DNA of 55,576 nt from a virus. The translations under genes and the position numbers were made by a program. The notes beneath the pieces are model-generated. The model was not told the origin of the DNA. It did no database searches and saw nothing but the letters and a program-made list of their open reading frames with translations. Where the stretch lies: positions 1 to 55,576 of the IMG/VR virus record IMGVR_UViG_3300025601_000022; one strand, 5' to 3'. Positions 17,753-55,576 of the stretch are shown one piece after another; position 1 is the stretch's first letter, and each line of letters starts with the position of its first letter.

Positions 17753-17782
17753 AGAGCCCCCCACCTTGCGGTAGGGGGCTCT
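17753..17782 (-). terminator. Terminator of the 17795 gene
   Basis: 9-bp AGAGCCCCC/GGGGGCTCT stem with inner ACC/GGT and TTGC loop. Identical over 30 bases to 18071-18100. Confidence 0.85.
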
Positions 17783-17794
17783 CAAAGTCTTGAC

Positions 17795-17989: not shown

Positions 17990-18012
17990 GGGATCCCCTC
18001 TCAGGAGATGTA

Positions 18013-18065
18013 TGGAGCCCCTTGCTCCATGTCTTAAGTATTACATAGTGCGGTTATATTGTCAA
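18013..18065 (-). promoter_or_regulatory. Minus-strand promoter with 5'-terminal hairpin
   Basis: TTGACA (18065-18060), 16 nt, TAATAC (18043-18038), hairpin TGGAGC-AAGGG-GCTCCA (18029-18013). Confidence 0.82.
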
Positions 18066-36920: not shown

Positions 36921-36921
36921 T

Positions 36922-39900: not shown

Positions 39901-41712
39901 TCTGCGCTTGTCGCTTGTGGAATTGTGGCGGGAGTAATTCCTACCACTCCCCCTGCAACGTGGTTCAATAACCCTGCATTGAAAGAGGCAACCCCTCTGA
40001 CAGTAGACGATGATGGTCGAGTTTTTGGCCACATTGCTGCATGGCATGTTGACCATATTGGAATGTCTTTTGGGACCAGACCTCCTCGAAGTAGAAGCAA
40101 ATATGCTTACTTCCATACCGGAGTCGTTCGTACCGAGGAAGGTAACGATGTCCCGGTTGGTCAACTAACTTTAGCTGGTGGCCATGCTTCTCTTGAAGCG
40201 TCAGCTCAGGAAGCCGTTCGTCACTACGACGACACCGCTTCGTCTATTGCAGATGTTCATGCAGGTGAAGACTCCTACGGAATTTGGGTAGCAGGGGCCC
40301 TACGTCCAGGCACATCTCCTGAGCAAGTCCGAGCTCTTCGTGCCTCTGCTCCTTCAGGTGACTGGCGTCCTATTAAGGGACAGCTTGAATTAGTTGCTGT
40401 ATGTCAAGTAAATGTTCCTGGATTCCCAATTGCCCGTGCTCGTGTTGCATCCGGCCAAGTCATGGCCCTCGTCGCGGCAGGTGCCAACACCTTGGCTCGA
40501 ATGAAGAGTGATCCCGTAACTGATCTAAAAAACCGTATCTCTAAATTAGAAGAGAAAGAAAATGCTCCTTTAGTGGCAGCAATGGAGTCTGCTAGATCTA
40601 AGGTTCTTGCTGTAAAAGCTGAAGAATTAGCTGCAAAAATGGGCAAAACCAAGAAAGAAATTGAAAAAGACTCTGACTACATGGTTTACGGAATAGATGA
40701 CGGTAACCCTGAAGAAGAGCTTGCAATTGTTTCACGCAGAATGCGTAAGCGTTTGGCTCAGGAAGGTAAAGCACTTCCTGACGGCTCATTCCCTATCAGA
40801 AATATAAACGACCTCAAAAATGCTATTCAATCATACGGTAGAGCAAAAGTTGGCAGCAAAGCTATGGTTCGTAGACATATTGTAAAAAGAGCTAGGGCAC
40901 TTAAACAGAGGGACATTGTCCCTCGAGAGTGGAAGGAAGCAGCGCTACTTGACTCTGTAGATAATATTCCTGACGAAGGAATTCTTGCAGCAGCAGATGA
41001 TCCGTGCTGGGAGGGCTACGTCATGATTGGGATGAAAACTCTCGATGGCAAAGAGGTTCCCAATTGCGTACCTAAAGATTCTGCAGTCCACGAGGTAGAT
41101 GAAGAAGATGATCTCCCAAAAGCACAGAGAGAGAGTAACAAAGAAAGTCTTACTCTCTCGAACGACATTCTTAGAGAAAGAATAAGAATTGTTGAGTCTA
41201 TGGTTGCTGCCGGTGGAGCCGACAGAAATCGTGGGAATGCTGAAAGTCTTCGTCGATACTGGACTCGCGGTGCAGGTGCATTAAAGATTCGCTGGGGAAC
41301 TCCTGGAGATTGGACTCGGTGCGTTCGATACCTGTCTAAGTACATGGGTGTTCGGGCAAAAGGCTACTGCCAATTGCGTCATAAAGAAGCAACTGGTGTA
41401 TATACCGGAAGCAAACTTAACCCAGGAAAACGCCGTGGTCGCAACAATAGTATCTTTTCTGCTTTTTCTGAGGCAGAATTTGGAATTTTTGAATCACTTT
41501 ATGGTGACCCAGAAGATTACACTACAAAAGTCTCTAACTCTGATTTAGAAATTCCTATGGAAGAGATTATGGCTCAGACTGACGATCTCTATGACAGCCA
41601 ATGGAACCCCCCTAAAGTTGTAGTTGTACTTATCAAAAAATGTGGATATTCTCCAGAAGGAGCTAGTCCAATAGTTGATGACTATAAGGATAATGACTAT
41701 GATAACAATTAG
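36922..41712 (+). CDS. 1596-residue capsid maturation protease polyprotein
   Basis: Modules by approximate residue: LAKGGQIGIKKIRHVAKYF ... WALWGGDAA (95-170); QMRDGLGRFAVTG (348); LRRFWIQGKG-RWG module, copy 1 (721-775); S78-like prohead protease (817-973) with His866 in GEGHNGS and Ser914 in GVSADL; a GRVFGHIAAWHVDHIG ... GIWVAGALRPGTS ... GDWRPIKGQLELVAV region (987-1190); RKRLAQEGKALPDGSFPIRN with RRHIVKRARAL (1272-1335); PCWEGYVMIGMKTLDG (1362); LRRYWTRGAG-RWG module, copy 2 (1442-1497). The true ATG is 36922, just after the upstream stop with AAGGA before it. The protease would cleave head proteins during maturation. Confidence 0.85.
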   Translation: MQFAGRSGTRVLFSSDNKSAIIDEELNYVLSIDYTPVLASSYVWSQTDFKPSVQSEDLAMAALTELDISVFSSSERMHTIPKSVQEEAKRAIEWRKEFKRGGTPIGLSSARTLAKGGQIGIKKIRHVAKYFPRHEVDKKGKGYKPADKEYPSNGRIAWALWGGDAAQKWSSSIVDRENKKENSSLVASHGYYDFEDPKTVDFSGFDSPAVKYMARVRLDGSGIDRLYAVKPCGTVLVWDDGSWNDLGHVDHDIKTYDKTLDDPYDTVDKMHVPLDPEAAVTVAALFDADPFSVRSLDEVAPEETAVYDLARFEMDFSIVDAIVAAPGFKTNQDGDYTPEERSEKATAQMRDGLGRFAVTGSRVIIGKNPNYKGEIVSQDGGAQTVKIKLDDGKYIDIAANQTQQEDTFNPIEQGREQPAGGGSLFDSNPIDTSGIIGEPRTPIGFAAQIPGTLPPLSRESLATMLNDFPAWVSSQRLSDKPVEAQTVVGLQKADYWYKKPDYNWSKLPNAMNNPMLRDFLENPKNRGWYASDIRMPDQLEATKSYEDVYRTPKARAQKDALIYESNSKYSYSKQISNGKTTVSSKYSKNSIIAAAENQSTETGAYENPRQSDVAPIYMAVVADDDAQAVMNLIALVPKGPGTTAPMTFKRDPGQWVADESILKDLNSPTPPPVVVLDNKALEDVITQIDGPAVAAQKKIDAMDGTQETTTASGFSGGPNEKHLRRFWIQGKGSSKVRWGSSGDMERCIEKMSIHLGPRAQAFCATLKKDAVGSWESSLTASALPSEEAVLDFIAMRSQRREAKNRILASASSYIVSEGEEGAEFYIPLVIPEEVESGDGRIFVSDAITIRELPLPLLWQIKTGEGHNGSVVVGKIVRMERTEEGIGNAYGFFDKGIYGKEAERLVKNGFIRGVSADLDQFEADEEAPEEGTDEEGKISSGKIKIRKARVMAVTIVPKPAFQECKIKVLETMKNQEDIVVPDGVYVDDLDAIEASALVACGIVAGVIPTTPPATWFNNPALKEATPLTVDDDGRVFGHIAAWHVDHIGMSFGTRPPRSRSKYAYFHTGVVRTEEGNDVPVGQLTLAGGHASLEASAQEAVRHYDDTASSIADVHAGEDSYGIWVAGALRPGTSPEQVRALRASAPSGDWRPIKGQLELVAVCQVNVPGFPIARARVASGQVMALVAAGANTLARMKSDPVTDLKNRISKLEEKENAPLVAAMESARSKVLAVKAEELAAKMGKTKKEIEKDSDYMVYGIDDGNPEEELAIVSRRMRKRLAQEGKALPDGSFPIRNINDLKNAIQSYGRAKVGSKAMVRRHIVKRARALKQRDIVPREWKEAALLDSVDNIPDEGILAAADDPCWEGYVMIGMKTLDGKEVPNCVPKDSAVHEVDEEDDLPKAQRESNKESLTLSNDILRERIRIVESMVAAGGADRNRGNAESLRRYWTRGAGALKIRWGTPGDWTRCVRYLSKYMGVRAKGYCQLRHKEATGVYTGSKLNPGKRRGRNNSIFSAFSEAEFGIFESLYGDPEDYTTKVSNSDLEIPMEEIMAQTDDLYDSQWNPPKVVVVLIKKCGYSPEGASPIVDDYKDNDYDNN

Positions 41713-41733: not shown

Positions 41734-42444
41734 ATGAAAATATACCCTGAAAACTACGATTTTACTCAAAAAGAAATAGATAATATGACTGCAGAAGAGC
41801 AAGATTTTTATAGTCCTCTGCCTGAAAATGACACCAATGGTCCTCCTGACGAAGCATATGATGAGTCCCCAGACGAACGAATGTTAGATGACAATCTTGA
41901 ACCTGGTGTAGAGCAGAAATACCGCTTTGAAGGCGGTAAATTTACGCCTGACACTCAGCCGAGAGATGCTGCAGGTCGTTTTCGGACAGTTTTAGCTCGA
42001 CTTAAGATTGATTTAGGCGCTGTGGGATCAGATAGAGCGCTTGAAAAGATTACAGAAGTTGAAAATTTTGACTTTACAGGAAACTACAGCGAGGCAGCTA
42101 AAGCTGCTGGAGATCTGATAGATATTATAGATCGACTTGATACAAAGGCACTTAACCCAGATTCTATCAGTAATGTTAGAGAAAGTAGTAGAGAGCTAGG
42201 AAAAACTATTGCTAATCTTCCGTTTGCATTTGGCGAAGACTCTAAGAAAATTAGATTTTCAGACGTTCCCCCGGCTCTTAGGGATCTTATCGAAGACATG
42301 ATTACTAGAGTTGAAGCAAAAATTGGTCCAGAAGATGCTGCTATTGCTACTAAAGAAATAAAATCTTTTATGTCTGGTCAAGAATTTTATAGTCAATCTG
42401 ACATCTCTTCTCAGATGGCAAAGCTACTTCGGTTGCTTACCTAA
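41734..42444 (+). CDS. 236-residue head-module protein with RDAAGRF motif
   Basis: An acidic N-terminus with YDFTQKEID, then TPDTQPRDAAGRFRTVLARLK at about 69-90, then a helical region. The RDxxGRF motif is shared with the two polyproteins upstream. It may be a scaffold or capsid-interacting protein; not proven. AAAGGATGAC precedes the ATG. Confidence 0.68.
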   Translation: MKIYPENYDFTQKEIDNMTAEEQDFYSPLPENDTNGPPDEAYDESPDERMLDDNLEPGVEQKYRFEGGKFTPDTQPRDAAGRFRTVLARLKIDLGAVGSDRALEKITEVENFDFTGNYSEAAKAAGDLIDIIDRLDTKALNPDSISNVRESSRELGKTIANLPFAFGEDSKKIRFSDVPPALRDLIEDMITRVEAKIGPEDAAIATKEIKSFMSGQEFYSQSDISSQMAKLLRLLT

Positions 42445-42485
42445 AAACCAAAAAAATCGTACAACTAGGCATACAAAAAGCACTG

Positions 42486-42600
42486 TACAATTTGTTACTA
42501 GGTGGAGTGCCTCCACGCCTCGTGCGTCTCGGAGTCCCTCGGCCCGACCGATCAGCATGGACTGAGAAAGCCTCAGACCCCACGACTGCCCTGGAGGGAC
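42486..42600 (+). promoter_or_regulatory. Structured leader of the major capsid gene
   Basis: TACAAT (42486-42491) resembles a -10 box, but no good -35 box is present. Hairpins GTGGAG-TGC-CTCCAC (42502-42516) and CTGAG-AAAGC-CTCAG (42562-42576) follow, then GGAGGGACA before the GTG. It is the longest gap in the head module. Confidence 0.45.
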
Positions 42601-42601
42601 A

Positions 42602-44659
42602 GTGGACCGTATAAAAGAACAGCTAGATCAGCTGGCGGAGCTTGGCGACGAAGATGTCGCTTCACTTCAGTCAGAGATCATTGGTGAATTTGAATCGGTC
42701 GAGACTCAAGATCCCACTCCACAGACAGTTGACGCTATGACGTCGCTTGCCGACATGCTTGACACCGTTCGCGGTGAAGTTAAGCGCCGCGAGGTTTTGG
42801 CAGCAGAGCTTGCTCAAAGAGCATCCGAAGCTGCTAGTCGTGTGTACGGTCAAGACGGCGGTCCTATGGAGGACATGGAAGATGGTATGGAAGATGGTAT
42901 GGAAGAGGAGGACAAGTCAATGACAGAAGCAGCAATGCCTATGGATGATGAAGTCTCCGACGATATGCCTTCCGATGAAGCCCCAATGGAAGATGAAATG
43001 CCAATGGAAGACGAGGCAGCTGTCGAAGTTGAGGTTGAAGAAGAAGAAATGCCTGAAATGAAATCTGAATCCGATGAGGACGAAGAAAAAATGGAAATGT
43101 CTACCACATCCGAAGCGTCAACCGCTGTAGAAGAGACCGTAGAGCTCTCGACAGAAGAAGTTACACCCGAGACCGTCACTGAGGCATCCGCCGAGGAGAC
43201 TGTTGTCGCTGCAGCTGAAGAACAAACTGCAGATACAACACCTGCCGAAGCGGAACTTTCTGCTAAGGAAGAAACAGCTTCAACTGATGCCGAAGTAAAT
43301 GCTGAGGCCGCAGTGCAAGAAACATCCCAAGAAGACCCAACCCCAATTATGGAGGCACCCGTGACCGCCGCTGCAGAAAACGCAGATAACCTCGATATCG
43401 AGGCCCCGGCTGACCGTCGTCCTGTTGTTCAGGCTGCTGCCGCTCCCGTGGCGATCACGGCGGGCGCTGACATCCCTGGATACACCGCTGGCAGCCCACT
43501 GAATGATATGAACGCTGTTGCTGAGGCAATGGCAAAGCGACTTCACGCGCTTAGGCGTGTGAATGGTGGAGATGGAGAACAACATATCGTTGCTTCTGTC
43601 ACCACATCCTTTCCAGAGGGTCGCACTCTCGGCACAGACGCCGAATCCAACTGGAACAAGATCCAGAACGTCGTTGGCCCAGAAGCCCTCGTCGCCGCTG
43701 GTGGACATCAAGCACCATTCGAGGTTCGCTACGACATCTTCGGTTTCGGTACCACAAACCGTCCCGTTCGTGACGCACTTCCTCGTTTCCAGGCCGACCG
43801 TGGCGGTATTCGCTACATCGTGCCTCCGGTGCTGACAAGCTATGACAATGCCGTCGGTGTATGGACCTCAGCAAATGATGCTGCAGGAAGTCCAGACCCA
43901 GCAGCAAAGAATAGCTTGACCGTGACTGCTGCTCAGGAAGTTACCGTCGCTACTGACGCTGTAACTCTGCAGATGCAGTTTGGTAACCTCGCAACTCGTG
44001 CATACCCAGAACTGATTGCTCGTCACAACGAGCTTGGTCTGATTCAGCACGCTCGTGAGTCAGAGCAGTATCTGCTCAGCAAGATTGCAGCCGGTTCGAC
44101 GGCAGTAACAACCGCAAGCCTTATTGGTTTCGGTCGGGACTTCCTCGTTCAGCTCAGTCGTGCTGCAACAGCGTATCGTTCGCGCCACCGCCTCGAAGCA
44201 GATGCTCCTCTGCGTGTCATTGTTCCTGCATGGATCAAGGATGCAATGGTTGCTGACCTCACCCTGTCAATGCCAGGTGACAGCACCATGAATGCTTACG
44301 GAGAAATTGAAGGCTACATGTCCTCACGCGGGATTGTAGCTAGCTATTCACTCGATCAAAACGTGTACGGTGTTCAGAATTCAGGAACTCTCAATGAGTT
44401 TGCTGACTCGTTCACTTGGTACATGTTTGCTGAAGGAACCTTCGTGTTCCTTGATGGCGGTACTCTGGATCTCGGAATTATTCGGGATTCAACCCTCACC
44501 GGAACCAACGATTACAAGATGTTCGTTGAAACCTTTGAAGGTGTCGCTAAGGTCGGTATCGAGGCACTTGTAGTTACAAGCACTATTAGTGTGAACGGTG
44601 TGGCTGCTGCCCTCCGCGATACCACTGGTGGAGCAACTGCAACGGCAATTGAATACTAA
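42602..44659 (+). CDS. Major capsid protein with acidic N-terminal scaffold-like region
   Basis: The product has 685 residues from GTG 42602 (GGAGGG upstream). Residues 1-85 are helical, about 85-255 strongly acidic (Glu/Asp/Met rich), and about 285-685 form the HK97-type capsid domain, with DNAVGVWTSANDA, QMQFGNLATRAYPELIARHNELGLIQHARESEQYL and LRVIVPAWIKDAM. The layout suggests a delta-like scaffold fused to the shell protein and removed by the upstream protease, as in HK97; the cleavage site is not identified. Confidence 0.87.
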   Translation: MDRIKEQLDQLAELGDEDVASLQSEIIGEFESVETQDPTPQTVDAMTSLADMLDTVRGEVKRREVLAAELAQRASEAASRVYGQDGGPMEDMEDGMEDGMEEEDKSMTEAAMPMDDEVSDDMPSDEAPMEDEMPMEDEAAVEVEVEEEEMPEMKSESDEDEEKMEMSTTSEASTAVEETVELSTEEVTPETVTEASAEETVVAAAEEQTADTTPAEAELSAKEETASTDAEVNAEAAVQETSQEDPTPIMEAPVTAAAENADNLDIEAPADRRPVVQAAAAPVAITAGADIPGYTAGSPLNDMNAVAEAMAKRLHALRRVNGGDGEQHIVASVTTSFPEGRTLGTDAESNWNKIQNVVGPEALVAAGGHQAPFEVRYDIFGFGTTNRPVRDALPRFQADRGGIRYIVPPVLTSYDNAVGVWTSANDAAGSPDPAAKNSLTVTAAQEVTVATDAVTLQMQFGNLATRAYPELIARHNELGLIQHARESEQYLLSKIAAGSTAVTTASLIGFGRDFLVQLSRAATAYRSRHRLEADAPLRVIVPAWIKDAMVADLTLSMPGDSTMNAYGEIEGYMSSRGIVASYSLDQNVYGVQNSGTLNEFADSFTWYMFAEGTFVFLDGGTLDLGIIRDSTLTGTNDYKMFVETFEGVAKVGIEALVVTSTISVNGVAAALRDTTGGATATAIEY

Positions 44660-44718
44660 GCTAAAACAGTAATTAATAACAACTAGGCCGTTCAGAAGCC
44701 CCGAGAGGAATAAAAAAG

Positions 44719-45594
44719 ATGGCATTTCAAGGAGCGTTTTTACCTCCAGAACTGACACCTGCCTCTTGCGGGCTTCTGAGCGTTGCCGACGTTGAGAAGC
44801 ACACAGGTCGGGAGTATGACGAGCGTTGGGTTCGTGGTTTTGACTATGAATTTGACACTCTTCCTACAGTCCGGTTGCTCTCTGTCGATGATGATGTAGT
44901 CACTGGCGGGGAGCTTTACGATGGTACGAGAAGTACTCGGTATCTCCCATACACCCCATTTTTTATTGAAGTAGAAGATTTTAGATCAGCATTTGACCTT
45001 CCCGGTGAAGATCGGTTCAAGAGGGTAAAAAAGCAACTAGAAGCTGCAACACAAAAAGCTACCGAAACAGAGTTGTGGAGCGGAAAAACTGCTTTAGGAA
45101 ACTCTAATGACAATTTATTCTTAAGCAAAGAAGGCTCTGCAACCTTGGCAGCAACTGGTGCGTTTCCACCAAATGTTGCTCTTATGTATTTAGAACAGGC
45201 GATATCAAACTCCCCTACGGGAGAGAGTGCAACAATCCACTTGACAAGAGACGTTGCCTCATATCTAAACAATGCCATTCTAGACACAGACCCATCAGAA
45301 AAAGGTTTACATCTAACTACTCGGATGGGAACTCGTGTTGTTATTGGTTCTGGGTACTCTGGAAGTGGCCCTATCGGGGCAGCGGGAGCGGCAGCAAGTC
45401 CTACAAATAAATGGATGTACGCGACCAGCAGGGTTCAAGTCCATTTAGGTAAAGTTGAAGTAGTAAACGACAATTTAGGTCAAGGAGTCAATGCTACTAT
45501 TAACGACATGAGAATCAAGGCTTTCCGCCCTGCAGCGGTCTACTTTGATCCCAGCATCCATTACACCGTCAGAGTGACTCTACCCACCTCGTAA
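44719..45594 (+). CDS. Second head protein, possibly HK97-fold
   Basis: The product has 291 residues. FIEVEDFRSAFDLPGEDRFKRVKKQLEAATQKATETELWSG, an HLTRDVASYL strand region and MYATSRVQVHLGKVEV near the C-terminus look like a capsid-type fold, but identity with the major capsid protein is not obvious. It may be a minor capsid or vertex protein. GAGAGGAAT precedes the ATG. Confidence 0.6.
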   Translation: MAFQGAFLPPELTPASCGLLSVADVEKHTGREYDERWVRGFDYEFDTLPTVRLLSVDDDVVTGGELYDGTRSTRYLPYTPFFIEVEDFRSAFDLPGEDRFKRVKKQLEAATQKATETELWSGKTALGNSNDNLFLSKEGSATLAATGAFPPNVALMYLEQAISNSPTGESATIHLTRDVASYLNNAILDTDPSEKGLHLTTRMGTRVVIGSGYSGSGPIGAAGAAASPTNKWMYATSRVQVHLGKVEVVNDNLGQGVNATINDMRIKAFRPAAVYFDPSIHYTVRVTLPTS

Positions 45595-45633
45595 CATTAA
45601 CTAACGTAAGAAATACTAAAGGAGAAAAAAGGA

Positions 45634-46677
45634 ATGGCCACTCAGGATTACGCGGCTAGCGTTCAAGGTGTGGCGATCCGAGTCACCAGACTGGACGCTG
45701 CTGGAAACTTGCTCAATGAAGCAGGAGATAGCTACACTACTACAGCATTTATGCGAACATCTTTTACCCCTGAATATGAAGAGGGCGACGAAGTTGTTGA
45801 AAAATCTGCGGACGGCACTGTGTGCGTGTCCTACAAGGCTCCCGATACCATGAAACGAATTACAATGGAACTTGCCATTTGTGAGCCAGATACAGAACTG
45901 ACTGCACTTATCTCAGGTGGATTGCTGCTTCGTAAAAACTTTGGAACATTTGCATCGCCTGAAAATAAGAGCATTGGTTGGGCAGCACCATCTGTTGGAG
46001 ATGACCCCACAGGAAATGGTGTCGCTCTAGAATGTTGGTCATTTGCTGTCAAAGATGGTCGTCGTTCTGCATCACTTCCATACTTTCACTGGGTGTTTCC
46101 CTACTGCCGCCTGCGTCAATCAGGCGATCGTGTGATTGAAAACGGAATGCTTGCAACTACGTTCGAGGGCTATGGCCTAGGTAACAATCTGTTTGCAGAC
46201 GGTCTTGATGGCCGCTGGGAGTTCCCTGTAGCCACCGAGCGCTCGTACTCATATGCTCGTACAACATATGCTCCTTCTGGGCTTAAAGGCTTCTATACAT
46301 GGCACAAGGATCTTGCTGCTTCTGTCTCGAACAAGTCTTTGACATCCAATATTGCAACTCTTACCACATCTTCTCCCCACACATATGCTGTAGGACAGAA
46401 AATTGTTGTCGCTGATGTTGACGCAACATTCAATGGTACACACACCATCACTGCAGTACCGTCTGCAACACAGATTAGATTTGCTAAGACAGCAAGTGAT
46501 GTTGTATCAACTGCAGTGTCACCTGCAGGTACCGTGGTCAGAAGCAAAGGATACGCAGCCGTAACAGACATTGATGGTTCACTTACTGAAAACTTCAACG
46601 TTCCAGGTAACGAAACGTATAACGACGAGTTGGATATTGACTTCATTGTTCCATCCGTTGAGGATCCAGTAGCATAA
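45634..46677 (+). CDS. Major tail (tube) protein with an inserted domain
   Basis: The product has 347 residues. The N-terminal three fifths (VQGVAIRVTRLDAAGNLL ... SFTPEYEEGDEVVEK ... YFHWVFPYCRLRQSGDRVIENG ... FEGYGLGNN) fit an actinophage tail tube subunit. Residues about 235-295 are a small beta domain (NIATLTTSSPHTYAVGQKIV ... TFNGTHTI) also found seven times in the distal tail protein. It probably sits on the outside of the tube. AAAGGAGAAAAAAGGA precedes the ATG. Confidence 0.8.
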   Translation: MATQDYAASVQGVAIRVTRLDAAGNLLNEAGDSYTTTAFMRTSFTPEYEEGDEVVEKSADGTVCVSYKAPDTMKRITMELAICEPDTELTALISGGLLLRKNFGTFASPENKSIGWAAPSVGDDPTGNGVALECWSFAVKDGRRSASLPYFHWVFPYCRLRQSGDRVIENGMLATTFEGYGLGNNLFADGLDGRWEFPVATERSYSYARTTYAPSGLKGFYTWHKDLAASVSNKSLTSNIATLTTSSPHTYAVGQKIVVADVDATFNGTHTITAVPSATQIRFAKTASDVVSTAVSPAGTVVRSKGYAAVTDIDGSLTENFNVPGNETYNDELDIDFIVPSVEDPVA

Positions 46678-46689
46678 TTCTAAAAAAGA

Positions 46690-46750
46690 GGGGCGAGTTG
46701 ACGTCCGCTAGTGGTTACACTGTTAGGCGGAACGTTACTCGCTCCTTTTT
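46690..46750 (+). terminator. Large intrinsic terminator after the tail tube gene
   Basis: GGGGCGAGT (46690-46698) and ACTCGCTCC (46737-46745), with further ACGT and CCGC/GCGG pairs inside, followed by TTTTT. It probably lowers expression of the genes downstream relative to capsid and tube. Confidence 0.82.
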
Positions 46751-46767
46751 AGATATCGAGGTATATT

Positions 46768-47907
46768 GTGAGTAATCTATGGACTACCGTAGAAGATCTT
46801 GGAGATTTCTCCGAGTCTGACTATGCCTATGATGCTTGCAAAACTGCTTCAAGCATTTTGTGGGCACTCTCTGGTCGAAAATTTAGTGGGGTAACCACGG
46901 TTACAGAACGATATGTATCTCAATTTGATCCTTATTTTAGTACTTCTGGTGCTGGATTTAAGTTTTTTCCTACTCTTGTTGGCGGGGAGACTCAAAACAT
47001 TCCAGTAGGAAGAGATCTTGCTGTCTACGGTAATGACTACCTAGGAGATGGAACTTCTTCTCGTTCACGAGTGCGTCTTAGGGGTCGTAAGGTTATCAAG
47101 GTCCACTGTGTAAGAAATAACGTCGGTGCGATTGTAGACCCTAAAACGTATTATTTAGCAGATCATTCGACTGTTTATGGCGCTCCAGGGTCCAATTGGA
47201 CAGCATTCAACGTTGAGATCACATATTCGTATGGAACACCTCCTCCCTCTTCTGGCAGAGCTGCTGCCCGACTTTTAGCAACAGAGCTAGTGAAAATGTA
47301 CGAAGGAGATGCCACCTGCGCTCTCCCTCAGAGAGTCACGAGTGTTTCTCGTCAGGGAGTAAGTTATACAATTCTAGATAGTCAAGACTTTCTTGATGAC
47401 ATGCGTACAGGGGTATACGCGGTAGATCTGTTTCTTAAGTCTGTTAACCCTGATAAGGCCAGAGCTAGAGCTAGAGTCTTTAGTCCCGACACTCCTAGGG
47501 CCAGAAGGATCACTCCTAAAGCTCCTGCTATTCCTCTCAGCTCATTTGACTTGTACGTTACACCTGAAGGTGGAGCGGTTCTGATCTATCTAGATGAAAT
47601 TGGCGGAGACTTTTTACTAGAAGACTCTTCTTGGACAATTAGTGCTCATGTGTCTGACTGGTCTAATGAGAAAATAGTACAACTTGTTGATGCTACAGAC
47701 CTGGATATAGTAGACGGCACTATACGAGTATCTGCCTCTTATTCAGACATTTCAAATATCATTGGTGCCAGAGATCCAGGAGTGTTGGATATTTATGCAA
47801 CACGTCCAAGTCTAGGCAACCCTGAAATTGATGAAATTATTAATTTAGTCTCCAGCAACGTGCTTTTCCAGCTGGGAGAACGAGTACTACCCATATATAC
47901 TGCATAA
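46768..47907 (+). CDS. Head-tail adaptor/connector protein
   Basis: The product has 379 residues from a GTG start. LGDFSESDYAYDACKTASSILWALSGRKFSG and CVRNNVGAIVDPKTYYLAD, then a helical region with ARLLATELVKMYEG, resemble connector proteins of actinophages. The C-terminal 120 residues are an extra beta-rich part. GATATCGAGG lies upstream. Confidence 0.75.
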   Translation: MSNLWTTVEDLGDFSESDYAYDACKTASSILWALSGRKFSGVTTVTERYVSQFDPYFSTSGAGFKFFPTLVGGETQNIPVGRDLAVYGNDYLGDGTSSRSRVRLRGRKVIKVHCVRNNVGAIVDPKTYYLADHSTVYGAPGSNWTAFNVEITYSYGTPPPSSGRAAARLLATELVKMYEGDATCALPQRVTSVSRQGVSYTILDSQDFLDDMRTGVYAVDLFLKSVNPDKARARARVFSPDTPRARRITPKAPAIPLSSFDLYVTPEGGAVLIYLDEIGGDFLLEDSSWTISAHVSDWSNEKIVQLVDATDLDIVDGTIRVSASYSDISNIIGARDPGVLDIYATRPSLGNPEIDEIINLVSSNVLFQLGERVLPIYTA

Positions 47908-47925
47908 AGACGAATTGGAGATGTT

Positions 47926-48435
47926 GTGACTACAAATAGAGACTTATCAAATGTTTCTGAGGATGCAAAAGCCCTTGCAGAGTACCTACAACAGATTTTA
48001 GACAAAACAGTTAATATTTTTGACAGCTACAGTCTTCCTTTGCCAGACAGAAGATACTGGACAATGGCGGATCCTGTCGTAGATTGTGAACAGTTAGTAG
48101 TGTCATTTATTCAAATGTATATTGGTGCTCCTGGGGATGAAGCTACTATGCCTAGACGTTGTATGGACCCTCGCACCGCTACTGTACACATTCAAATTGC
48201 TCGTCAAGTCCCTGTTGTTGGTCCTAGCGGTTCAGCCCCTTCTGCAGCCGTTATTCAAGAAAACTCTCAACTACAAGCATACGACGCTTGGGCCATGATA
48301 CAGAGTGCCGCTGAGTTAGATGCTTGGGAGACATCTGGGGGTTTTGGTCTAGGTGTTATTGCCACCGTAGAGACTTCAGAGCCTGAAGGCGGGTATCAGA
48401 GCACTACATTGACCATTACATCGGCGGTGCCATAA
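47926..48435 (+). CDS. Head-tail connector or tail terminator protein
   Basis: The product has 169 residues from a GTG start, preceded by TTGGAG. CEQLVVSFIQMYIG, then VHIQIARQVPVVG and a helical QAYDAWAMIQSAAELDAW segment, resemble the small connector or terminator proteins between adaptor and HK97-gp10-like genes. The exact role is uncertain. The stop overlaps the next start. Confidence 0.65.
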   Translation: MTTNRDLSNVSEDAKALAEYLQQILDKTVNIFDSYSLPLPDRRYWTMADPVVDCEQLVVSFIQMYIGAPGDEATMPRRCMDPRTATVHIQIARQVPVVGPSGSAPSAAVIQENSQLQAYDAWAMIQSAAELDAWETSGGFGLGVIATVETSEPEGGYQSTTLTITSAVP

Positions 48436-48821
48436 TGGTAAATATTGTATTCAGAGAGCCAGTACTTTCTAAATTTTTAGACTCCCCTTCCGGAGAAGTA
48501 GGAAAATATCTTTCCAAAAAAGGTACACAGATTGTCGCTCTTGCTAAGGGACAAGTAGGAGTACGAAGTGGAGCTTTAAGATCTTCTATTCATATGAGGC
48601 ATCTTAGGGACTCAAGGGGTCAATATATTAAAGTAGGGTCCTCAAAAAAATATGCTCGATTGCATCATGAAGGCAGTCGTCCACACATGATTTACCCAAG
48701 AAAAGCAAAAATGCTCAGATTTGTTAGTAGAGGTCAGGTGGTGTATGCGAACTCCGTTCGGCACCCTGGGACCAAAGCAAACAAGTATCTTACGGATCCC
48801 ATGCGTAAGATAGTACGGTAA
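48435..48821 (+). CDS. HK97 gp10-like neck protein
   Basis: The product has 128 residues. VGVRSGALRSSI, VGSSKKYARLHHEGSRPHMI, a PRKAKMLRF strand and a VRHPGTKANKYL C-terminal motif match the HK97 gp10 family, a head-tail joining protein. Confidence 0.83.
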   Translation: MVNIVFREPVLSKFLDSPSGEVGKYLSKKGTQIVALAKGQVGVRSGALRSSIHMRHLRDSRGQYIKVGSSKKYARLHHEGSRPHMIYPRKAKMLRFVSRGQVVYANSVRHPGTKANKYLTDPMRKIVR

Positions 48822-48869
48822 AATAAAGGTAGACCTAGACAAGGTCAACGACACACGAAGGAAGAGAAT

Positions 48870-49223
48870 ATGACATCTAGATTCAAGGATTTTGGCGAAG
48901 ATAGTGGAGTCAATAAGGCCCCACTTTCATTTAAGCTTTATGGAGAAGAGTTTCACTGCGTTCCCGCAATTCAAGGAAGAGTTCTTTTAGACCTCGTTAG
49001 GAAAGCATCTGATGAAAATGATCCCGGTGCTGCTGCAGAAGTAGTAGATGAGTTTTTTAAGAAAACACTTAATGTAGAAAGTTATGAACGATTTGCTGCA
49101 TTGACAAGCGATTCAGAAAAAATTGTCACAGTTGAAACACTGAGTGAAATTACTGGATGGCTGGTATCAGAGTACTCGGAACGCCCTACGAAGGGGCCAG
49201 AAGTCTCCTCCAATGGGGAGTAG
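48870..49223 (+). CDS. Tail assembly chaperone, short form (gpG-like)
   Basis: The product has 117 residues. FKLYGEEFHCVPAIQGRVLLDLVRKA and a helical C-terminus fit the first tail chaperone. Genes of this position usually make a second, longer form by frameshift; the next frame is open in -1 from 49136. GGAAGAG precedes the ATG. Confidence 0.82.
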   Translation: MTSRFKDFGEDSGVNKAPLSFKLYGEEFHCVPAIQGRVLLDLVRKASDENDPGAAAEVVDEFFKKTLNVESYERFAALTSDSEKIVTVETLSEITGWLVSEYSERPTKGPEVSSNGE

Positions 49224-49618
49224 ATCTTTGGCCCTATGTGAATGGTAAAGCACTTATGAGTGGAATAAGACTTGAAAGCTTAGATGCTTCTGACATGGTT
49301 GATGTTCTTCATTTTATGTTTGAAGAAGATCTGTACGCTGCTACTGGAGAAGAAGCAATTCATAAGTCTAAAATCAGAACCACTCTTTATCGGGAGTTCT
49401 ATAAAAAAGAATATGACTATACAGTAGATGATAGCTCTAATAATTCTTATAGCGCAGATGGATCACTCTTACCCCCTTTAGATGATGAGTTTGGTCTAGA
49501 ACCATTTAACCCTGATAACCCAGTAAAACCAAAAACAAAAGCATTTGTTCCAACAACTAAATTCAGTCCAAACTCTGCTCTACCTTTTGGTAGAGACGTA
49601 GATGCTCCACTCGGTTAG
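49157..49618 (+). CDS. Tail assembly chaperone, frameshift extension (gpT-like)
   Basis: The -1 frame is open from 49136 to 49618 and overlaps the end of the upstream gene. The best slip site is AAG-GGG-CCA at 49191-49199, where tRNA-Gly could move back on the GGGG run, giving ...PTKG-ARSLLQWGVDLWPYVNG. No good ribosome binding site precedes the internal ATG 49157, so expression as a fusion 48870-49618 (about 249 residues) is more likely. The long, acidic, Pro-rich tail is usual for this family. Confidence 0.75.
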   Translation: MAGIRVLGTPYEGARSLLQWGVDLWPYVNGKALMSGIRLESLDASDMVDVLHFMFEEDLYAATGEEAIHKSKIRTTLYREFYKKEYDYTVDDSSNNSYSADGSLLPPLDDEFGLEPFNPDNPVKPKTKAFVPTTKFSPNSALPFGRDVDAPLG

Positions 49619-49631
49619 GAGGTGATGGCGC

Positions 49632-52600
49632 GTGGCAGTTGTAGGTGATGCATACATTGTTGTACGCGCCATTACCAACCAAGTAAAAGACGACATTAAG
49701 CGCGGATTTGACGGAGCTGATCGAGAGGGTGGAAAAGCCGGTGATGATGCCGGTAAGTCTTTTTCTAAAGGATTTAAAAAATCTATGGGAAGGGGAGGTG
49801 GCGGCGGCGGCGGAGGAATGTTCTCCTCGCTCAGGAGAGATGCAGATCAAGCTAAAATTAAATTTGATCGACTTATTAATACGGGGTACATACTTGGTCC
49901 TGTATTAGCTGGTCTTATTTCTATAGCAACTGGACTAGCTGGAGGTCTGTTTGCATTAGGTTCGCAAGCTGCTGCTGCTGGCCCATCACTTTTAGCTCTT
50001 CTCAATGTATTTTCATCTTTAGCTCAAGCGGGAGGGGTTCTAAAGGTAGCATTTAGTGGTATTGGAGATGCACTAGGAGCAGCAAGTCAAACTTCTGGTG
50101 GCGCTGCTCAAAATATGAGTAAGCAGATTGAAGCTGCTGAAAAAAGAATTGATAATGCTAAAAAAAGAGTTCTTACTGTTCAAAAACAAAATGAGAGAGC
50201 AACACTATCTGCTCGTAAGCAGCAAGAAGATGCAGATAAAGCATATCAAGACAGTATAAACAATCAAACAAAAGCTGCCGAAAGAGTAGTTGAAGCTGAA
50301 AAAAATATTCTTAAGGCTCAAGAAGAAACAACAAAAGCTCGAGAAGAAGCAATTGAAGCAATTCAACAACTCGGATTTGCCTTAGAAGACGCAGTTCTGT
50401 CTGAGCAACGTGCCGTGCTTAACTTTGAAGATGCCAGAGAAGCTCTCGCTAAAGTACAAAATCTTCCACCTAATAACCGAGCTCGACGGGAAGCAGAGCT
50501 TGCTTTTGCTGAAGCAGATTTAAAGCTTCGTAAAGCAAAAGACAACACACTAGACACTCAAAAAGAAGTAGACGACTCGGTTAAAAAGGGTGTTGAAGGT
50601 TCTGATCGAGTAGTGTCCGCTATTGAAAATGAGACAGATGCTAAAAAAGCTCTCGCTAATGCTCAAGAAGGTGTTGAACAAGCTGCTATAGCTGTTACAG
50701 AAGCTATACAAGGTCAGGCAGATGCTACAAATAATTTGACTGCAACTGTTGAAGAGAATAAAGCTCGCATGGCAGAAGCAAAAGAGTCACTTTTAGACGC
50801 TAAAGATGCTTTAAAAGACTTAAAAAGTGAGACAGGGGGCGCTAGTGGTGGTGTAGACAAGTTTGCAGAAGCTATGGCAAAACTTTCTCCTAATGCTCAA
50901 GGCTTTGTTCGAGAACTTATCAGCATAAAAGAAGAATTTAAAGAAGTTAAACTTGCTACTCAAGAAGCACTCTTTGGCACCTTAACAAAAGATGTTAGCA
51001 AACTAGCGGATGTGTGGTTTCCTAAGCTAAAAGCACTTATGCCAGACACTGCTACTGAAATCGGCAAAGTAGCTACTAAGCTCACAAACGTTCTTACTGA
51101 GAGCGGAAATATTGGGCAAATTGAAAACATCTGGAAAAGCAACGATGTACTTATTAGCAGTTTTGGTGGGGCTACCGCAAACTTAGTAGATATTTTTATT
51201 GATCTTATGGAAGCTGCTGCCCCCCTTGCTGAAGAATTCGCCGCTTGGATCGAAACACTTACGGGTGGTTGGAAAGAGACCGTAAATGCTGATAGAGAAT
51301 CAGGAAAACTTTCAAAAACTTTAACAGATTCTGCGGGGGTTGCTAAAGTTCTTGCTGGAGTTTTTGGAGATTTATTCGCAACTATCGGGAATATTGGAAA
51401 AGCAGCCGCCGGTCCAGGATCAGGCGGAGAAATGCTTCTTAATATGCTCAAAAAGGTTACAGGTAAATGGAAAGAGTTTACTGGAAGTGAAGAGGGACAA
51501 GCAAGACTAGAAAAATTTTTTATAGGTATTGTCCCTCTTGTCTCTGAAGTTGGTGGGCTTATTGCCGATATCGGTAAAGCTTTTTTTGAGTTGACGGAAA
51601 GCAGCGCTAATGCTGAAGGCGGAGACCCTACTGCAAAATTTGTTGAATCGCTGAGAAATGTTGTTGCAATTTTTGCAGAAATAGGTCCAGATCTAGTAGG
51701 GGTGCTCCCTACAATTGGTGAAGGCTTTGAGGCAGCTGCGCAGGCCATCGTTAACCTTACCAGCGGTGGCGCTCTTGAAGCATTCTTTGGCTTTTTGACA
51801 AAGTTTGCAGAGTTTGCAGAAGACATTACAGGAAGTCCCGTATTTCAAAAAATCTTTGCTATCGTGGCCCCGGCTTTTGCACTGAGTCGCGCGTTCTCTC
51901 TTGTTTTTAAGTTTGCTCGTTTTCTATTCTTAGGTGCAATCATAGGAAACATTACAAAGTTTGCCGGAGCCTTTTCAGCTTTAAAAAGTGCAGTGAGTGC
52001 TGTCCTTTTCAATATTAAATTACTCTTTTTTACTTTTGGAACAGGTCCAGTACTTTTATTTACAGCCGTTATTATTGGTCTTGTTGCAGCGTTTGTCGCA
52101 ATGTGGAATGAATCAGAGATTTTTCGTGAAGCAATAAAGGACCTAATCGACAATGTTATACAAAGAGCAATTGAAATTTTTGAAAGACTAAAGGCTAAAG
52201 TAGAAGAAGCTTTGAAACCTCTTGGTGGAACATCTGGTGTAGTTGACAAGCTTAAGGTAGCTTTTAAATTTCTTGGTGACATCATAGGTAAGTATATTAT
52301 TCCGCTCTTCGAGGGAGGACTAAAAAATGCACTTGATATAATTGGTGCAATTTTTGGAACAATTATTGACACTATTGGTAAATTTATTGCTGCTTTTATG
52401 AGAATCTTTAATGGTATTAAAGAGGGGGATATTAGTGAAATTTTTGCTGGTATCGTTGATGCAATTATTGCGCCATTTAGTGCCTTAATAGGCAACCTAG
52501 TAGATCTTTTCACCCGAATTTGGGACAATGTCATCTCTGCCGTAAAAAAAGTTCTCGGTATCGCCAGTCCTTCGCAAGTATTTACAGACATTGCTACAGC

Positions 52601-53456
52601 AATTTTTGATGCCATTATTGGTGTAATTACTTTTCTACCTGAAAAATTCTTAGAGTTCTTCACTACTATGTGGACTAATGTCACTGATTTTGTCACAAAT
52701 ACTATAGGCCCTGAGCTAGTAAAACTTCCAGGAAGAATAACAGGGTGGATTTCGGGCCTCTGGGATGAATTTTTAAAGAGGTTAGAAGTTATCTGGGGTA
52801 GAATTGTTTCCTTTATAGATATAGCCGGAAAAGTTGGACTATTTATTTTAGGTCTTCCAGGTAAGTTTGGTAAATGGCTAAGAGGGATTTGGGATACTTT
52901 CTATGAATTTCTTACCGGGCCAGACGGTCCTTGGGAGAAAGTTAAAGCTTTCTTTGGCGATAATGGCCCGATAGCAAAATTCGTTAGAGCCATTCCGGGA
53001 GCTGTAAAGGATTGGCTTGATGGCCTATGGGACCCAATGGTAACTGGAATTAAAGCTGCTTGGGGCTTAGTAAAAGACTTTTGGAACACTTCTATTGGTG
53101 GAAAAACAGTCGGACTTGATTTTCCAGATTGGATAAGTAGGGTTCCAGGTTTTTCTTGGGTGCCAAAAGAATTTAAATTTACTATCCCTAAACTGTTAGC
53201 TGACGGGGGTGTAGTTTCTGCTAGTAGAGGAGGGACTCTAGCAGTTATTGGCGAAGGAGGACGGTCTGAGCGAGTAGAGCCTCTTGATCCGGACGGGCTA
53301 TCTAAACGAGACAAAGCAATGATTACTCTTCTATCTGGCGGGAGTGCAGGAGGAGCTACAATTAACGTGTATCCTTCCGAGGGAATGGACGAAAGAGAAT
53401 TGGCACAAAAGGTGTCACGAGAACTAGCATTTATGATGCGTAGAGGAACTCTGTAA
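49632..53456 (+). CDS. Tape measure protein
   Basis: The product has 1274 residues from GTG with a perfect GGAGGTGAT upstream. A Gly-rich and basic N-terminus (about 35-65), hydrophobic segments near 85-130, a long Ala/Lys/Glu coiled coil (about 165-400), several hydrophobic segments between 690 and 1000, and a C-terminal GGVVSASRGGTLAVIGEGG motif are typical. Using about 1.5 angstrom per residue from the family, the tail would be near 190 nm long. It is the scaffold for tail assembly, and its hydrophobic parts may enter the membrane at infection. Confidence 0.92.
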   Translation: MAVVGDAYIVVRAITNQVKDDIKRGFDGADREGGKAGDDAGKSFSKGFKKSMGRGGGGGGGGMFSSLRRDADQAKIKFDRLINTGYILGPVLAGLISIATGLAGGLFALGSQAAAAGPSLLALLNVFSSLAQAGGVLKVAFSGIGDALGAASQTSGGAAQNMSKQIEAAEKRIDNAKKRVLTVQKQNERATLSARKQQEDADKAYQDSINNQTKAAERVVEAEKNILKAQEETTKAREEAIEAIQQLGFALEDAVLSEQRAVLNFEDAREALAKVQNLPPNNRARREAELAFAEADLKLRKAKDNTLDTQKEVDDSVKKGVEGSDRVVSAIENETDAKKALANAQEGVEQAAIAVTEAIQGQADATNNLTATVEENKARMAEAKESLLDAKDALKDLKSETGGASGGVDKFAEAMAKLSPNAQGFVRELISIKEEFKEVKLATQEALFGTLTKDVSKLADVWFPKLKALMPDTATEIGKVATKLTNVLTESGNIGQIENIWKSNDVLISSFGGATANLVDIFIDLMEAAAPLAEEFAAWIETLTGGWKETVNADRESGKLSKTLTDSAGVAKVLAGVFGDLFATIGNIGKAAAGPGSGGEMLLNMLKKVTGKWKEFTGSEEGQARLEKFFIGIVPLVSEVGGLIADIGKAFFELTESSANAEGGDPTAKFVESLRNVVAIFAEIGPDLVGVLPTIGEGFEAAAQAIVNLTSGGALEAFFGFLTKFAEFAEDITGSPVFQKIFAIVAPAFALSRAFSLVFKFARFLFLGAIIGNITKFAGAFSALKSAVSAVLFNIKLLFFTFGTGPVLLFTAVIIGLVAAFVAMWNESEIFREAIKDLIDNVIQRAIEIFERLKAKVEEALKPLGGTSGVVDKLKVAFKFLGDIIGKYIIPLFEGGLKNALDIIGAIFGTIIDTIGKFIAAFMRIFNGIKEGDISEIFAGIVDAIIAPFSALIGNLVDLFTRIWDNVISAVKKVLGIASPSQVFTDIATAIFDAIIGVITFLPEKFLEFFTTMWTNVTDFVTNTIGPELVKLPGRITGWISGLWDEFLKRLEVIWGRIVSFIDIAGKVGLFILGLPGKFGKWLRGIWDTFYEFLTGPDGPWEKVKAFFGDNGPIAKFVRAIPGAVKDWLDGLWDPMVTGIKAAWGLVKDFWNTSIGGKTVGLDFPDWISRVPGFSWVPKEFKFTIPKLLADGGVVSASRGGTLAVIGEGGRSERVEPLDPDGLSKRDKAMITLLSGGSAGGATINVYPSEGMDERELAQKVSRELAFMMRRGTL

Positions 53457-55576
53457 TGGCTACTGAAGAACAGCTACAGCGCGGAATAGAGCAAGCACGA
53501 GAAAACGCTATCGTTAATAAGTCTCTTACAAATGTAAAGCAGCCTAAGTTTACTAACCTTAAACTTCAAAGAGACATAATTCTTGGGGACTTTATTTTTA
53601 ACACTATTGATGATTATGGTGTTGTATGGGTCATTACAGATATTGATGGGTGGTGGACTCCACCTGAAGCAGATATGCCAGAAATCCCTCGAGGTTATGG
53701 CGACGGATCCTACGACGTACAAGGCAGATATGTAGCCAGATCACTTAACTTAAAAGGTGTATTTCTCACTCCCGACTCTTCTTTGGTTGAAGCCGCCCGA
53801 GATCGACTAACCGCTGCTACTGATCTTGTCTATCGAGGTACTTGGCTGCTAGCGGGAACTGACCCTATTCGCGCATCTTTCGTTCGACTCTCAAGCGGTC
53901 CAAAGATAGCTACAGTAAATGCAAGAGGCCGTACCGAATTTGAGATCCCGCTAAGGGCACCAGACCCTATCAAATATGCGTGGAACGATTCTCAACCTGA
54001 CGGCTACGAGACAATAGAAATCTCTGCACTTAAGTATGGAGATACTCTTTCTGGTTCCGGAATTGTCAATAATATTGGAAACTATAAAGTCCCTGCAATC
54101 TTAGAAGTTAGCGGTCCTGTAGTCGCGCCAGCAACAATCTACAATAGAACTACAGATGAACTTATCATTCTGACTACTGGTTTTGGTGGGTCACTTAGTG
54201 CAAGAATTGAAAATGTTCAGCTTTCGTTTGATCAAAATATTCTCGAAGATATGGCAACAATTACAACAAGAAATCCTCATGGATTCTCTGTAGGAAGCGA
54301 GATCACTGTTTCAGGAGTTAATGAAACATTTGATGGGACGTATACAATCAGAAGTATCCCTACAGAAACTACTTTTAAGTACTCGAGACTGCCCAGGGTT
54401 TCTGACATCAAACAAGTTTTGTATCGTTCATTAATCAGCAATATTGCTAAAATTGAAACAACTACAAATCATGGATTCTCTATTGGAAATGAAATTCTTA
54501 TTTCTAATGTAGACAGCGTATTTGATGGTACGTACAGTATTACATCTATTCCTAATTTGACATCATTCACTTATCAAACAACACGAGTCCCCGTTGCTCC
54601 TGTTACAGGTAAAATTCTTGTTTCTAATATTGCAACTCTTACCACATCTGCTCCTCACGGATTTCTTGTCGGAGAGCAAGTAAATATTTTGGGAGTAGAT
54701 GATATTAATTTCAATGGAGTTTACGTTATTTCTTCCGTATCTTCTGACGGATTAAAATTTAGTTATGCAAAAAGTAGAACAAACTCTAAAACTATTCTAA
54801 CATCTGTAATTGCTTCTTTGCAAGCAACAATTACTACGTCAGGTAGTCACGGATTTTCTGTAGGTGAGCAAGTAAATATCACCGATATGTCTCAGGCATA
54901 CGGAGGATCTTTTACTGTTAGTGCACTTCCCACCCTAAACTCTTTTACATTTTTTAGAGACAGATCCACTAAAAGCTCGGTAATATCTAAGGCAATTGCA
55001 TCTGCCGTTGCTACTCTCACAACATCAACTCCGCACGGGGTACTGCCTGGGGAAAAGATTATTGTAAAAGACTCCAATGTTGGATCACCTGCAGTATTTA
55101 ATGGAGAGTTTACCGTAATATCTACTCCAAGTAGTACTGCTCTATCCTATAACAGATCAGGAATAGAAAACATTATTCCTACAGTAGTTTCAGGTGGGTC
55201 GATTTCTCCTAGCTCTAGATGGATCGTTAGAAAAAATTTAATTGGAAGCGTTGCCACACTTACTACGCTAAGTGCACACGGGATTCTTGTGGGCGAGTCT
55301 GTTCAAATAAATAATGTTGATGCTACATTCAACGGTGCATACCAGGTTACTGCTGTGTCGCAAAATACTTTTAGTTTCACGAAGGCTTCTGCTAACGTAT
55401 CAGACTCTTCTACAGCGATTGCCATTGTAAACATTGAAAGATCTGGAACTACTGCAACTATTACTACAGGGGGTAATCATGGATTCCCTTCTGGAAGCGA
55501 ATTATTAATAGGAAATATAGCAATCTCTTCACTTAATGGGTATTACACTGTCACTGTTCCTGCTGCAAATCAGTTG
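53456..55576 (+). CDS. Distal tail protein with seven repeat domains (partial)
   Basis: The ATG overlaps the tape measure stop (TAATG), and the frame runs off the window end, so over 700 residues are present. The first 230 residues (DIDGWWTPPEADMPEIPRG, YVARSLNLKGVFL, GRTEFEIPLRAPDP) fit a distal tail/Dit-type protein. Seven copies of a domain of about 50 residues then follow in units of about 60-65 residues (TITT-NPHGFSVGxEIxIxGV-xTFxGTYTI-S-P), from about 54250 to the end. The same domain interrupts the tail tube protein. Confidence 0.8.
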   Translation, partial: MATEEQLQRGIEQARENAIVNKSLTNVKQPKFTNLKLQRDIILGDFIFNTIDDYGVVWVITDIDGWWTPPEADMPEIPRGYGDGSYDVQGRYVARSLNLKGVFLTPDSSLVEAARDRLTAATDLVYRGTWLLAGTDPIRASFVRLSSGPKIATVNARGRTEFEIPLRAPDPIKYAWNDSQPDGYETIEISALKYGDTLSGSGIVNNIGNYKVPAILEVSGPVVAPATIYNRTTDELIILTTGFGGSLSARIENVQLSFDQNILEDMATITTRNPHGFSVGSEITVSGVNETFDGTYTIRSIPTETTFKYSRLPRVSDIKQVLYRSLISNIAKIETTTNHGFSIGNEILISNVDSVFDGTYSITSIPNLTSFTYQTTRVPVAPVTGKILVSNIATLTTSAPHGFLVGEQVNILGVDDINFNGVYVISSVSSDGLKFSYAKSRTNSKTILTSVIASLQATITTSGSHGFSVGEQVNITDMSQAYGGSFTVSALPTLNSFTFFRDRSTKSSVISKAIASAVATLTTSTPHGVLPGEKIIVKDSNVGSPAVFNGEFTVISTPSSTALSYNRSGIENIIPTVVSGGSISPSSRWIVRKNLIGSVATLTTLSAHGILVGESVQINNVDATFNGAYQVTAVSQNTFSFTKASANVSDSSTAIAIVNIERSGTTATITTGGNHGFPSGSELLIGNIAISSLNGYYTVTVPAANQL

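What the first reader, a model, noticed from the sequence alone, without database searches (positions are those of the whole stretch)
45634..55576. One small beta domain interrupts the tail tube and repeats seven times in the distal tail protein
The tail tube insert and copies in the distal protein share the pattern TxTT-xHxxxxGxxxxxxxV-xxFxGTxxIxxxP. At DNA level 24 bases are identical between 46348-46371 and 54626-54649, suggesting recent copying or gene conversion. Such surface domains may bind host carbohydrate and vary by copy number.
Basis: partly seen in the sequence, partly recalled or inferred. Interest (0 to 1): 0.65.

Follow-up and report, generated by a model that had tools for sequence, protein, structure and literature searches.

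The report
One barrel module decorates phage tail
A freshwater-type actinobacterial phage carries the same small sugar-binding-like barrel once on every tail-tube subunit and seven times in a row on its tail-tip protein, and in related phages this barrel comes apart into halves that appear to join two separate tail-tip proteins together.

Summary
A profile built only from six Dit copies finds the major tail protein (MTP) insert at E=8e-19 and nothing else in six frames. The 'distal protein' is the distal tail protein Dit. Identical contigs show it is 866 aa with seven copies inserted in its C-terminal domain; the window ends inside copy 7. The MTP copy does not break the tube fold. It sits between the tube core and a conserved C-terminal tail, where relatives carry 0-4 copies; Dit carries 0, 1, 6, 7 or 8. 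The fold is a six-stranded barrel like the endosialidase and E1-FCCH barrels, not Ig. Recent copying or gene conversion is not supported: copies are orthologous by position across phages, and copy number is clade-stable. Best reading: an 'evolved' MTP/Dit decoration that probably gives multivalent glycan contact (binding untested). Unexpected in relatives: the barrel occurs as nested half-domains. In nine phages the Dit-like protein has exactly five unpaired first halves and the next protein five second halves; in eight of these that next protein also ends in Dit's last strand. This suggests a split Dit zipped together by half-domains (one exception, L254).

The parts
45634..46677 (+). Major tail (tube) protein, 347 aa; tube core ~aa 1-223, inserted barrel domain, conserved C-terminal tail ~aa 308-347
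   Evidence: phrog_792 E=9.7e-18; full-length homologues in A3Wally, Cece, Pumpernickel and others, several annotated major tail protein
46297..46548 (+). Inserted beta-barrel domain of the MTP (aa 222-305 by the model; profile core aa 236-285 = nt 46339-46488)
   Evidence: AlphaFold2 pLDDT 91-97 over most of the stretch; Dit-only profile E=8e-19; absent in 271-272-aa relatives
53456..55576 (+). Distal tail protein (Dit), open at the contig end; the complete protein is 866 aa on identical contigs
   Evidence: phrog_5577 minor tail protein; PF22768 SPP1_Dit in homologues; Foldseek to SPP1 Dit 2x8k, p2, 80alpha Dit prob 1.00; 100% identity to L010-L012 over 12,121 nt
54236..54388 (+). Dit barrel copy 1
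   Evidence: profile hit aa 265-315 of ORF 53444-55576
54428..54580 (+). Dit barrel copy 2
   Evidence: profile hit
54614..54772 (+). Dit barrel copy 3 (carries the 24-nt match to the MTP insert)
   Evidence: profile hit; 24-nt run
54806..54958 (+). Dit barrel copy 4
   Evidence: profile hit
54992..55156 (+). Dit barrel copy 5
   Evidence: profile hit
55235..55384 (+). Dit barrel copy 6
   Evidence: profile hit
55436..55576 (+). Dit barrel copy 7, truncated by the end of the contig
   Evidence: profile hit; complete in L010-L012
49632..53456 (+). Tape measure protein (context; no copies of the module)
   Evidence: phrog_4197 E=3.8e-72
46768..47907 (+). Head-tail adaptor (context; no copy here, one copy in 454-474-aa proteins at this relative position in some relatives)
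   Evidence: phrog_783 E=4.1e-39; extra single-copy ORFs at -6.0 to -6.4 kb of Dit

Best explanation
The element is one mobile protein module of about 62-75 aa: a six-stranded beta-barrel of the endosialidase-barrel / E1-FCCH type. It is used as an accessory surface domain on a siphovirus tail. One copy is inserted after the tube core of every MTP subunit, so it would stud the tube in rings of six. Seven copies are inserted in tandem in a loop of the galectin-like C-terminal domain of Dit, making an 'evolved Dit' whose array projects at the tail tip. Shown: homology, placement, copy-number differences, predicted fold. Inferred: surface exposure, and that the barrels make weak multivalent contacts with host cell-surface glycan, spread over tube, Dit and (in relatives and in the next gene) Tal-like and adaptor proteins.
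For: One family in both proteins. Dit identity. Insertion sites shown by relatives lacking the domain: MTP 271-272 aa, Dit 310-336 aa without it, 388-400 aa with one copy, 775-795 with six, 854-882 with seven, 956 with eight. Fold: confident AF2 models of both with the same strand pattern. The MTP model matches E1 FCCH-containing chains and phage endosialidases K1F/phi92 at probability 1.00 and a BFVD baseplate wedge subunit at 0.9 A over 78 columns. Repeats hit PF16190 E1_FCCH (10 of 32) and PF12195 End_beta_barrel (6 of 32), weakly. The profile hits phi92 endosialidase over the whole domain, E=0.018. The K1F barrel is a polysialic-acid binding site and host-discrimination hotspot (PMC12632334). 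Recognised CBM_4_9 domains occur on Dit of sister phages. Precedent: CBMs on MTP, Dit and neck in 936 phages with measured binding (PMC6669499); an evolved Dit restores adsorption (PMC10688798).
Against: No binding experiment; no conserved sugar-site residues were tested. The most conserved residues (H23, G42 of alignment A3) look structural. The FCCH relatives in E1 are not known as sugar binders (own knowledge), so fold similarity alone does not give the function. The tube core of the MTP model is poor (pLDDT ~25-58), so orientation on the tube is not modelled. Nested and split arrays in relatives fit a structural rod at least as well as a lectin.
Confidence: 0.55

Rival explanations
1. Structural rod or scaffold: the barrels are spacers that build rigid arms and staple tail-tip proteins together; sugar binding is not their job. 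In relatives the module is split into halves that pair within or between chains.
For: Nested ((...)) arrays in MTP, the protein after Dit, and a large tip protein. Split Dit with 5 unpaired first halves and 5 second halves on the next protein in 9 phages. Copy number clade-stable, as expected for architecture.
Against: The single copy on the MTP is an isolated decoration with no partner. Some MTPs and Dits lack it altogether, so it is dispensable for assembly in those phages.
Confidence: 0.32
2. The MTP insert and Dit copy 3 result from recent copying or ongoing gene conversion.
For: 24 identical bases and 81% identity over 57 nt. It is the longest within-genome match among 38 phages; 1 of 1,406 cross-genome pairs reaches 24 nt, and that one involves a near-identical MTP.
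Against: Codon identity is unremarkable (z=1.9, 8th of 289). All 29 MTP copies cluster with MTP copies and Dit copies cluster by position. Mean within- and cross-genome matches are about equal.
Confidence: 0.03
3. Fast copy-number variation tunes host range (phase-variation-like).
For: Copy number 0-8 in Dit, 0-4 in MTP.
Against: Copies at different positions are only ~30-40% identical to one another, with little DNA repeat to recombine. Among Dits >90% identical in the core, only 2 of 42 pairs differ. 6-, 7- and 8-copy Dits form one clade.
Confidence: 0.05
4. Ordinary Ig-like surface domains as in lambda gpV or T5 pb6.
For: Same position logic: C-terminal decoration of the tube protein.
Against: Six-stranded barrel; best matches are the E1 FCCH and endosialidase barrels, no Ig hit among the top matches of the MTP model; no Ig model among leading Pfam hits.
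Confidence: 0.02

Closest known systems
CBM-decorated 936-group lactococcal siphophages: MTP TpeX, evolved Dit, neck passage structure (PMC6669499)
   Same: One kind of accessory surface domain on MTP and Dit of the same virion; optional between close relatives; [quoted passage not shown]
   Different: Unrelated domain (BppA-type CBM there, small six-stranded barrel here); the MTP copy here is inside the reading frame before a conserved C-terminal tail, with no frameshift; Dit has a seven-copy tandem array; relatives infect actinobacteria
Endosialidase beta-barrel domain (PF12195; K1F endoNF 3GVJ/3JU4/1V0E, phi92 4HIZ)
   Same: Fold by Foldseek (prob 1.00, 95-99 columns), weak but full-length sequence similarity, H-G-x(3)-G-D-type motif
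   Different: There a single barrel in an enzyme tailspike; here no enzyme domain, many copies, structural tail proteins
E1 ubiquitin-activating enzyme FCCH domain (PF16190)
   Same: Fold and weak profile match
   Different: Cellular enzyme domain with a different role; below Pfam cut-off where the cut-off was shown
SPP1-type Dit (2X8K; PF22768)
   Same: Core fold of the distal protein, C-terminal galectin-like domain, position after the tape measure
   Different: Array inserted inside the C-terminal domain; in nine relatives the next protein carries matching half-domains, and in eight of them also the domain's last strand

Membership tests
Evolved Dit | Dit core with SPP1_Dit-type fold | tested here: met
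   Foldseek SPP1, p2, 80alpha, Douge prob 1.00; PF22768 in homologues
Evolved Dit | Extra domain inserted in a Dit loop, absent in classical Dits | tested here: met
   310-336-aa Dits lack it, 388-956-aa Dits carry 1-8 copies at the same point
Evolved Dit | Inserted domain is a carbohydrate-binding module that binds host | not testable with these tools
   only fold similarity to a polySia-binding barrel
PF12195 End_beta_barrel | Sequence match above Pfam cut-off | tested here: inconclusive
   6 of 32 copies match weakly, best E=0.0029; bit scores against the cut-off were not shown for these members; no hit for the window's own proteins
PF16190 E1_FCCH | Sequence match above Pfam cut-off | tested here: not met
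   A3Wally Dit-like protein 20.8 bits against cut-off 29.5; 10 of 32 copies match, best E=1.6e-4; no hit for the window's own proteins
Six-stranded FCCH/endosialidase-like barrel (fold class) | Same fold by structure comparison | tested here: met
   predicted models, not experimental
Ig-like phage decoration domain | Ig sandwich fold | tested here: not met
Split Dit (proposed here, relatives only) | Last Dit strand on another protein and equal numbers of half-domains | tested here: met
   nine loci with array totals 7/7 or 8/8; last strand at the end of the next protein in eight of nine; exceptions: L254 has no partner found, L255 lacks the terminal strand motif

The most novel reading that the evidence does not exclude
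The barrel's first half (strands 1-3) and second half (strands 4-6) need not be adjacent. Copies insert into copies, giving nested arrays that run out as first halves and return as second halves. In Microbacterium phages and related metagenomic phages the chain is cut, so Dit carries the outgoing halves and the next tail protein carries five returning halves plus, in most, Dit's own last strand. Two proteins would thus be zipped together by five shared barrels.
Probability: 0.6. Interest if true: 0.75.

Novelty: new variant of a known kind. Interest (0 to 1): 0.56.

Why it matters
It extends the 'decorated virion' idea (the same accessory domain on tube, Dit and other tail proteins) from dairy phages to a large group of actinobacterial phages seen in metagenomes, with a different domain and an unusually long Dit array. 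If the split, nested reading is right, it is a new way to join two tail proteins: complementary half-domains, plus donation of a terminal strand to Dit. That is directly testable by structure prediction of the pair or by co-expression, and it would change how phage tail-tip genes are annotated (the final part of Dit would lie in a protein annotated 'minor tail protein').

Tried and rejected
Gene conversion / recent copy: three tests, not supported. Ig fold: rejected. Fast copy-number variation: rejected by tree and pair counts. Host genome search with the MTP alignment: none of 29 candidate stretches in genome contigs encodes a relative, so no host is assigned from that. NCBIfam: nothing useful. 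Dit alignment against PDB sequences: no hits; only the fold search worked. Literature search for FCCH in phage tails and for split or nested Dit: nothing relevant; the library holds only open-licence papers. Zagie, Count and Streptomyces phage proteins similar to the N-part of the split partner share only that part; a half-domain scan of Zagie was negative.

Full report
What is there. The window is a whole IMG/VR virus record of 55,576 bases, a fragment of a tailed phage. Its MTP is 63-68% identical over its whole length to those of ~190-kb Microbacterium phages (A3Wally, Pumpernickel, Zooman, Big4, Cece) and 70% identical over residues 1-248 to the freshwater phage DSL-LC01. MTP is 45634-46677, the tape measure 49632-53456, and an open ORF starts at 53456. 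The open ORF contains seven copies of a ~62-aa unit and the MTP contains one. A profile built only from the six complete Dit copies finds, in six frames of the window, only those two ORFs; the MTP copy scores 61 bits, E=8e-19.

The distal protein is Dit. Homologues carry PF22768. The AF2 model of the full-length protein matches SPP1, p2, 80alpha and Douge baseplate (Dit) chains with probability 1.00. Three contigs are 100% identical to the window over 12,121 bases and continue. They show an 866-aa protein with seven copies followed by ~75 aa and the remainder of the Dit C-terminal domain ending ...VYYRSGWLS. The array therefore interrupts the galectin-like C-terminal domain.

Insertion sites and copy number. 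Among 70 distinct complete Dits from IMG/VR and DSL-LC01, the array has 0 (13), 1 (19), 6 (21), 7 (16) or 8 (1) copies. Among distinct MTPs, 134 have one copy, 12 none detected and 8 two to four. The shortest MTPs with a C-terminal tail (271-272 aa) pass directly from the tube core ...GFYTW to the tail ...YNVPGxxxxN...EDP, so the insertion point is exact and lies outside the tube core. Copy number is a clade property: 13 parsimony changes against 39 for shuffled labels; among Dits more than 90% identical in the core, 2 of 42 pairs differ. Copies also occur in a 454-474-aa protein at the adaptor position, in the protein after Dit, and in other genes of relatives, and more distantly in cyanophage baseplate and fibre proteins.

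No recent copying. The longest within-genome MTP-Dit matches average 11.3 nt in 38 phages, against 10.9 for mismatched genomes; the window's 24 is the top within-genome value. At shared amino acids, MTP insert and Dit copy 3 use the same codon at 14 of 26 sites against 9.5 expected, z=1.9, 8th of 289 comparisons. All 29 MTP copies have an MTP copy of another phage as nearest relative, and Dit copies are nearest to the same position in other phages in nearly all cases (D1 32/32, D2 31/32, D3 32/32, D6 31/32), never to a copy in the same genome. The 24-base run is a conserved peptide (NIATLTTS) with matching codons. I read it as chance within a conserved motif; a short ancient tract cannot be excluded.

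Fold. In the MTP model the inserted domain has pLDDT 91-97, while the tube core is poorly modelled at about 25-58. The Dit model has ~90 over the repeats. Both show the same strand order, a long first strand then strands of ~6, 5, 5 and 5 and a long last strand. Foldseek of the MTP model gives E1 enzymes and phage endosialidases (3GVJ, 3JU4, 4HIZ, 1V0E) at probability 1.00, with E-values only about 0.001-0.05, probably because most of the query is the poor core. BFVD gives a baseplate wedge subunit at 0.9 A over 78 columns and a 1307-aa protein, the length of the A3Wally and H2-phage gp98, at 1.0 A. Independently by sequence, 10 of 32 copies match PF16190 (E1 FCCH) and 6 match PF12195 (endosialidase barrel), weakly; phi92 endosialidase is the best PDB sequence hit, E=0.018 over the whole domain. 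It is a small barrel, not an Ig sandwich.

How it most likely works. In K1F the homologous-looking barrel is one of three polysialic-acid sites, and its loops discriminate hosts (PMC12632334). [quoted passage not shown]). Transferring an evolved Dit restores infectivity and adsorption (PMC10688798). Sister phages here carry recognised CBM_4_9 domains on Dit. I therefore favour weak multivalent glycan contact by barrels along the tube and at the tip. Shown: homology, position, predicted fold. Inferred: exposure and sugar binding.

The unexpected part, in relatives. In the Microbacterium phages the unit comes apart into a first half A (strands 1-3) and a second half B (strands 4-6). Profiles trained without these phages (false-positive rate 0.01-0.03 per shuffled protein) read, after the Dit core, 8 A and 3 B, or 7 A and 2 B, and in the next protein five B: A3Wally, H2 phage, Big4, L253, L255 8/3+5; Zooman, Pumpernickel, Cece, L252 7/2+5 (L252 and L255 each have one extra weak B; for the one in L252 the iterated scan places it at residue 113, far from the array; Cece may be 8/3 by the full profile). 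Unmatched A equals B on the partner, five each, although upstream counts vary. In eight of the nine, the partner protein, not the Dit-like protein, ends in the last Dit strand (xxVRFRSGWSG-like), while the Dit-like protein runs from ...FAPGxNxIEFFD straight into the A array. An unsplit relative, L066, has a 1,698-aa Dit with a different long insertion before that same last strand. Single-chain nested arrays occur elsewhere: () in the protein after Dit of L057, L061 and L069, also L056 and L062 with an extra weak leading hit; ()(in the L235 MTP; and five- or six-deep in the third tip protein.

Limits. L254 has the five B halves and the RSGW end, but no Dit or A array was found on its 18.7-kb contig. 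In L255 the partner is 2,106 aa and lacks the RSGW end. Phages in this set are related, so nine loci are fewer independent events. Lowering the cut-off to 0 bits breaks the equality in several phages, but there false positives rise to 0.17-0.26 per protein. No complex was modelled. No host was assigned for the window phage; the genome collection gave no hit.

Noticed in passing
L003:12394-18569 (also L251, L250, L249, L005, L004, L252, L253, L255): Dit appears split over two genes: nested half-domain array, with the last Dit strand at the C-terminus of the next 'minor tail protein' (in all but L255).
   Followed up: partly
L092 against window 41935-48437 and 53561-54007: A contig 95.7% identical to the window through MTP and adaptor genes but carrying a Dit only ~56% identical with six copies so far (open end): a mosaic exchange of the tail-tip block.
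   Followed up: partly
L058, L076, L062 (Dit genes): Sister Dits carry a CBM_4_9 domain before the Dit core.
   Followed up: no
L066:9926-15019: 1,698-aa Dit with a long unidentified insertion just before the last Dit strand.
   Followed up: no
window 17648-18040: Direct repeat of at least 30 bases (TGGAGCCCCTTGCTCCATGTCTTAAGTATT) about 365 bases apart in a region with few long + strand ORFs; also (AAGGCG)n at 4959 and a 22-base-period repeat at 16997.
   Followed up: no
window 36808-41712: 1,634-aa ORF matching both portal (phrog_859) and head maturation protease (phrog_18402) families over overlapping parts.
   Followed up: no
window 24354-35666: 3,770-aa ORF upstream of the head genes, not identified here.
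   Followed up: no
window 42602-44659: 685-aa ORF at the position of the capsid gene of relatives, with a long acidic Met/Glu-rich N-terminal region (MEDGMEDGMEEEDKS...).
   Followed up: no
L180, L181, L220, L222, L233, L221, L173/L174 (MTP genes): 422-524-aa MTPs with two to four or nested barrel-like inserts at the same point.
   Followed up: partly
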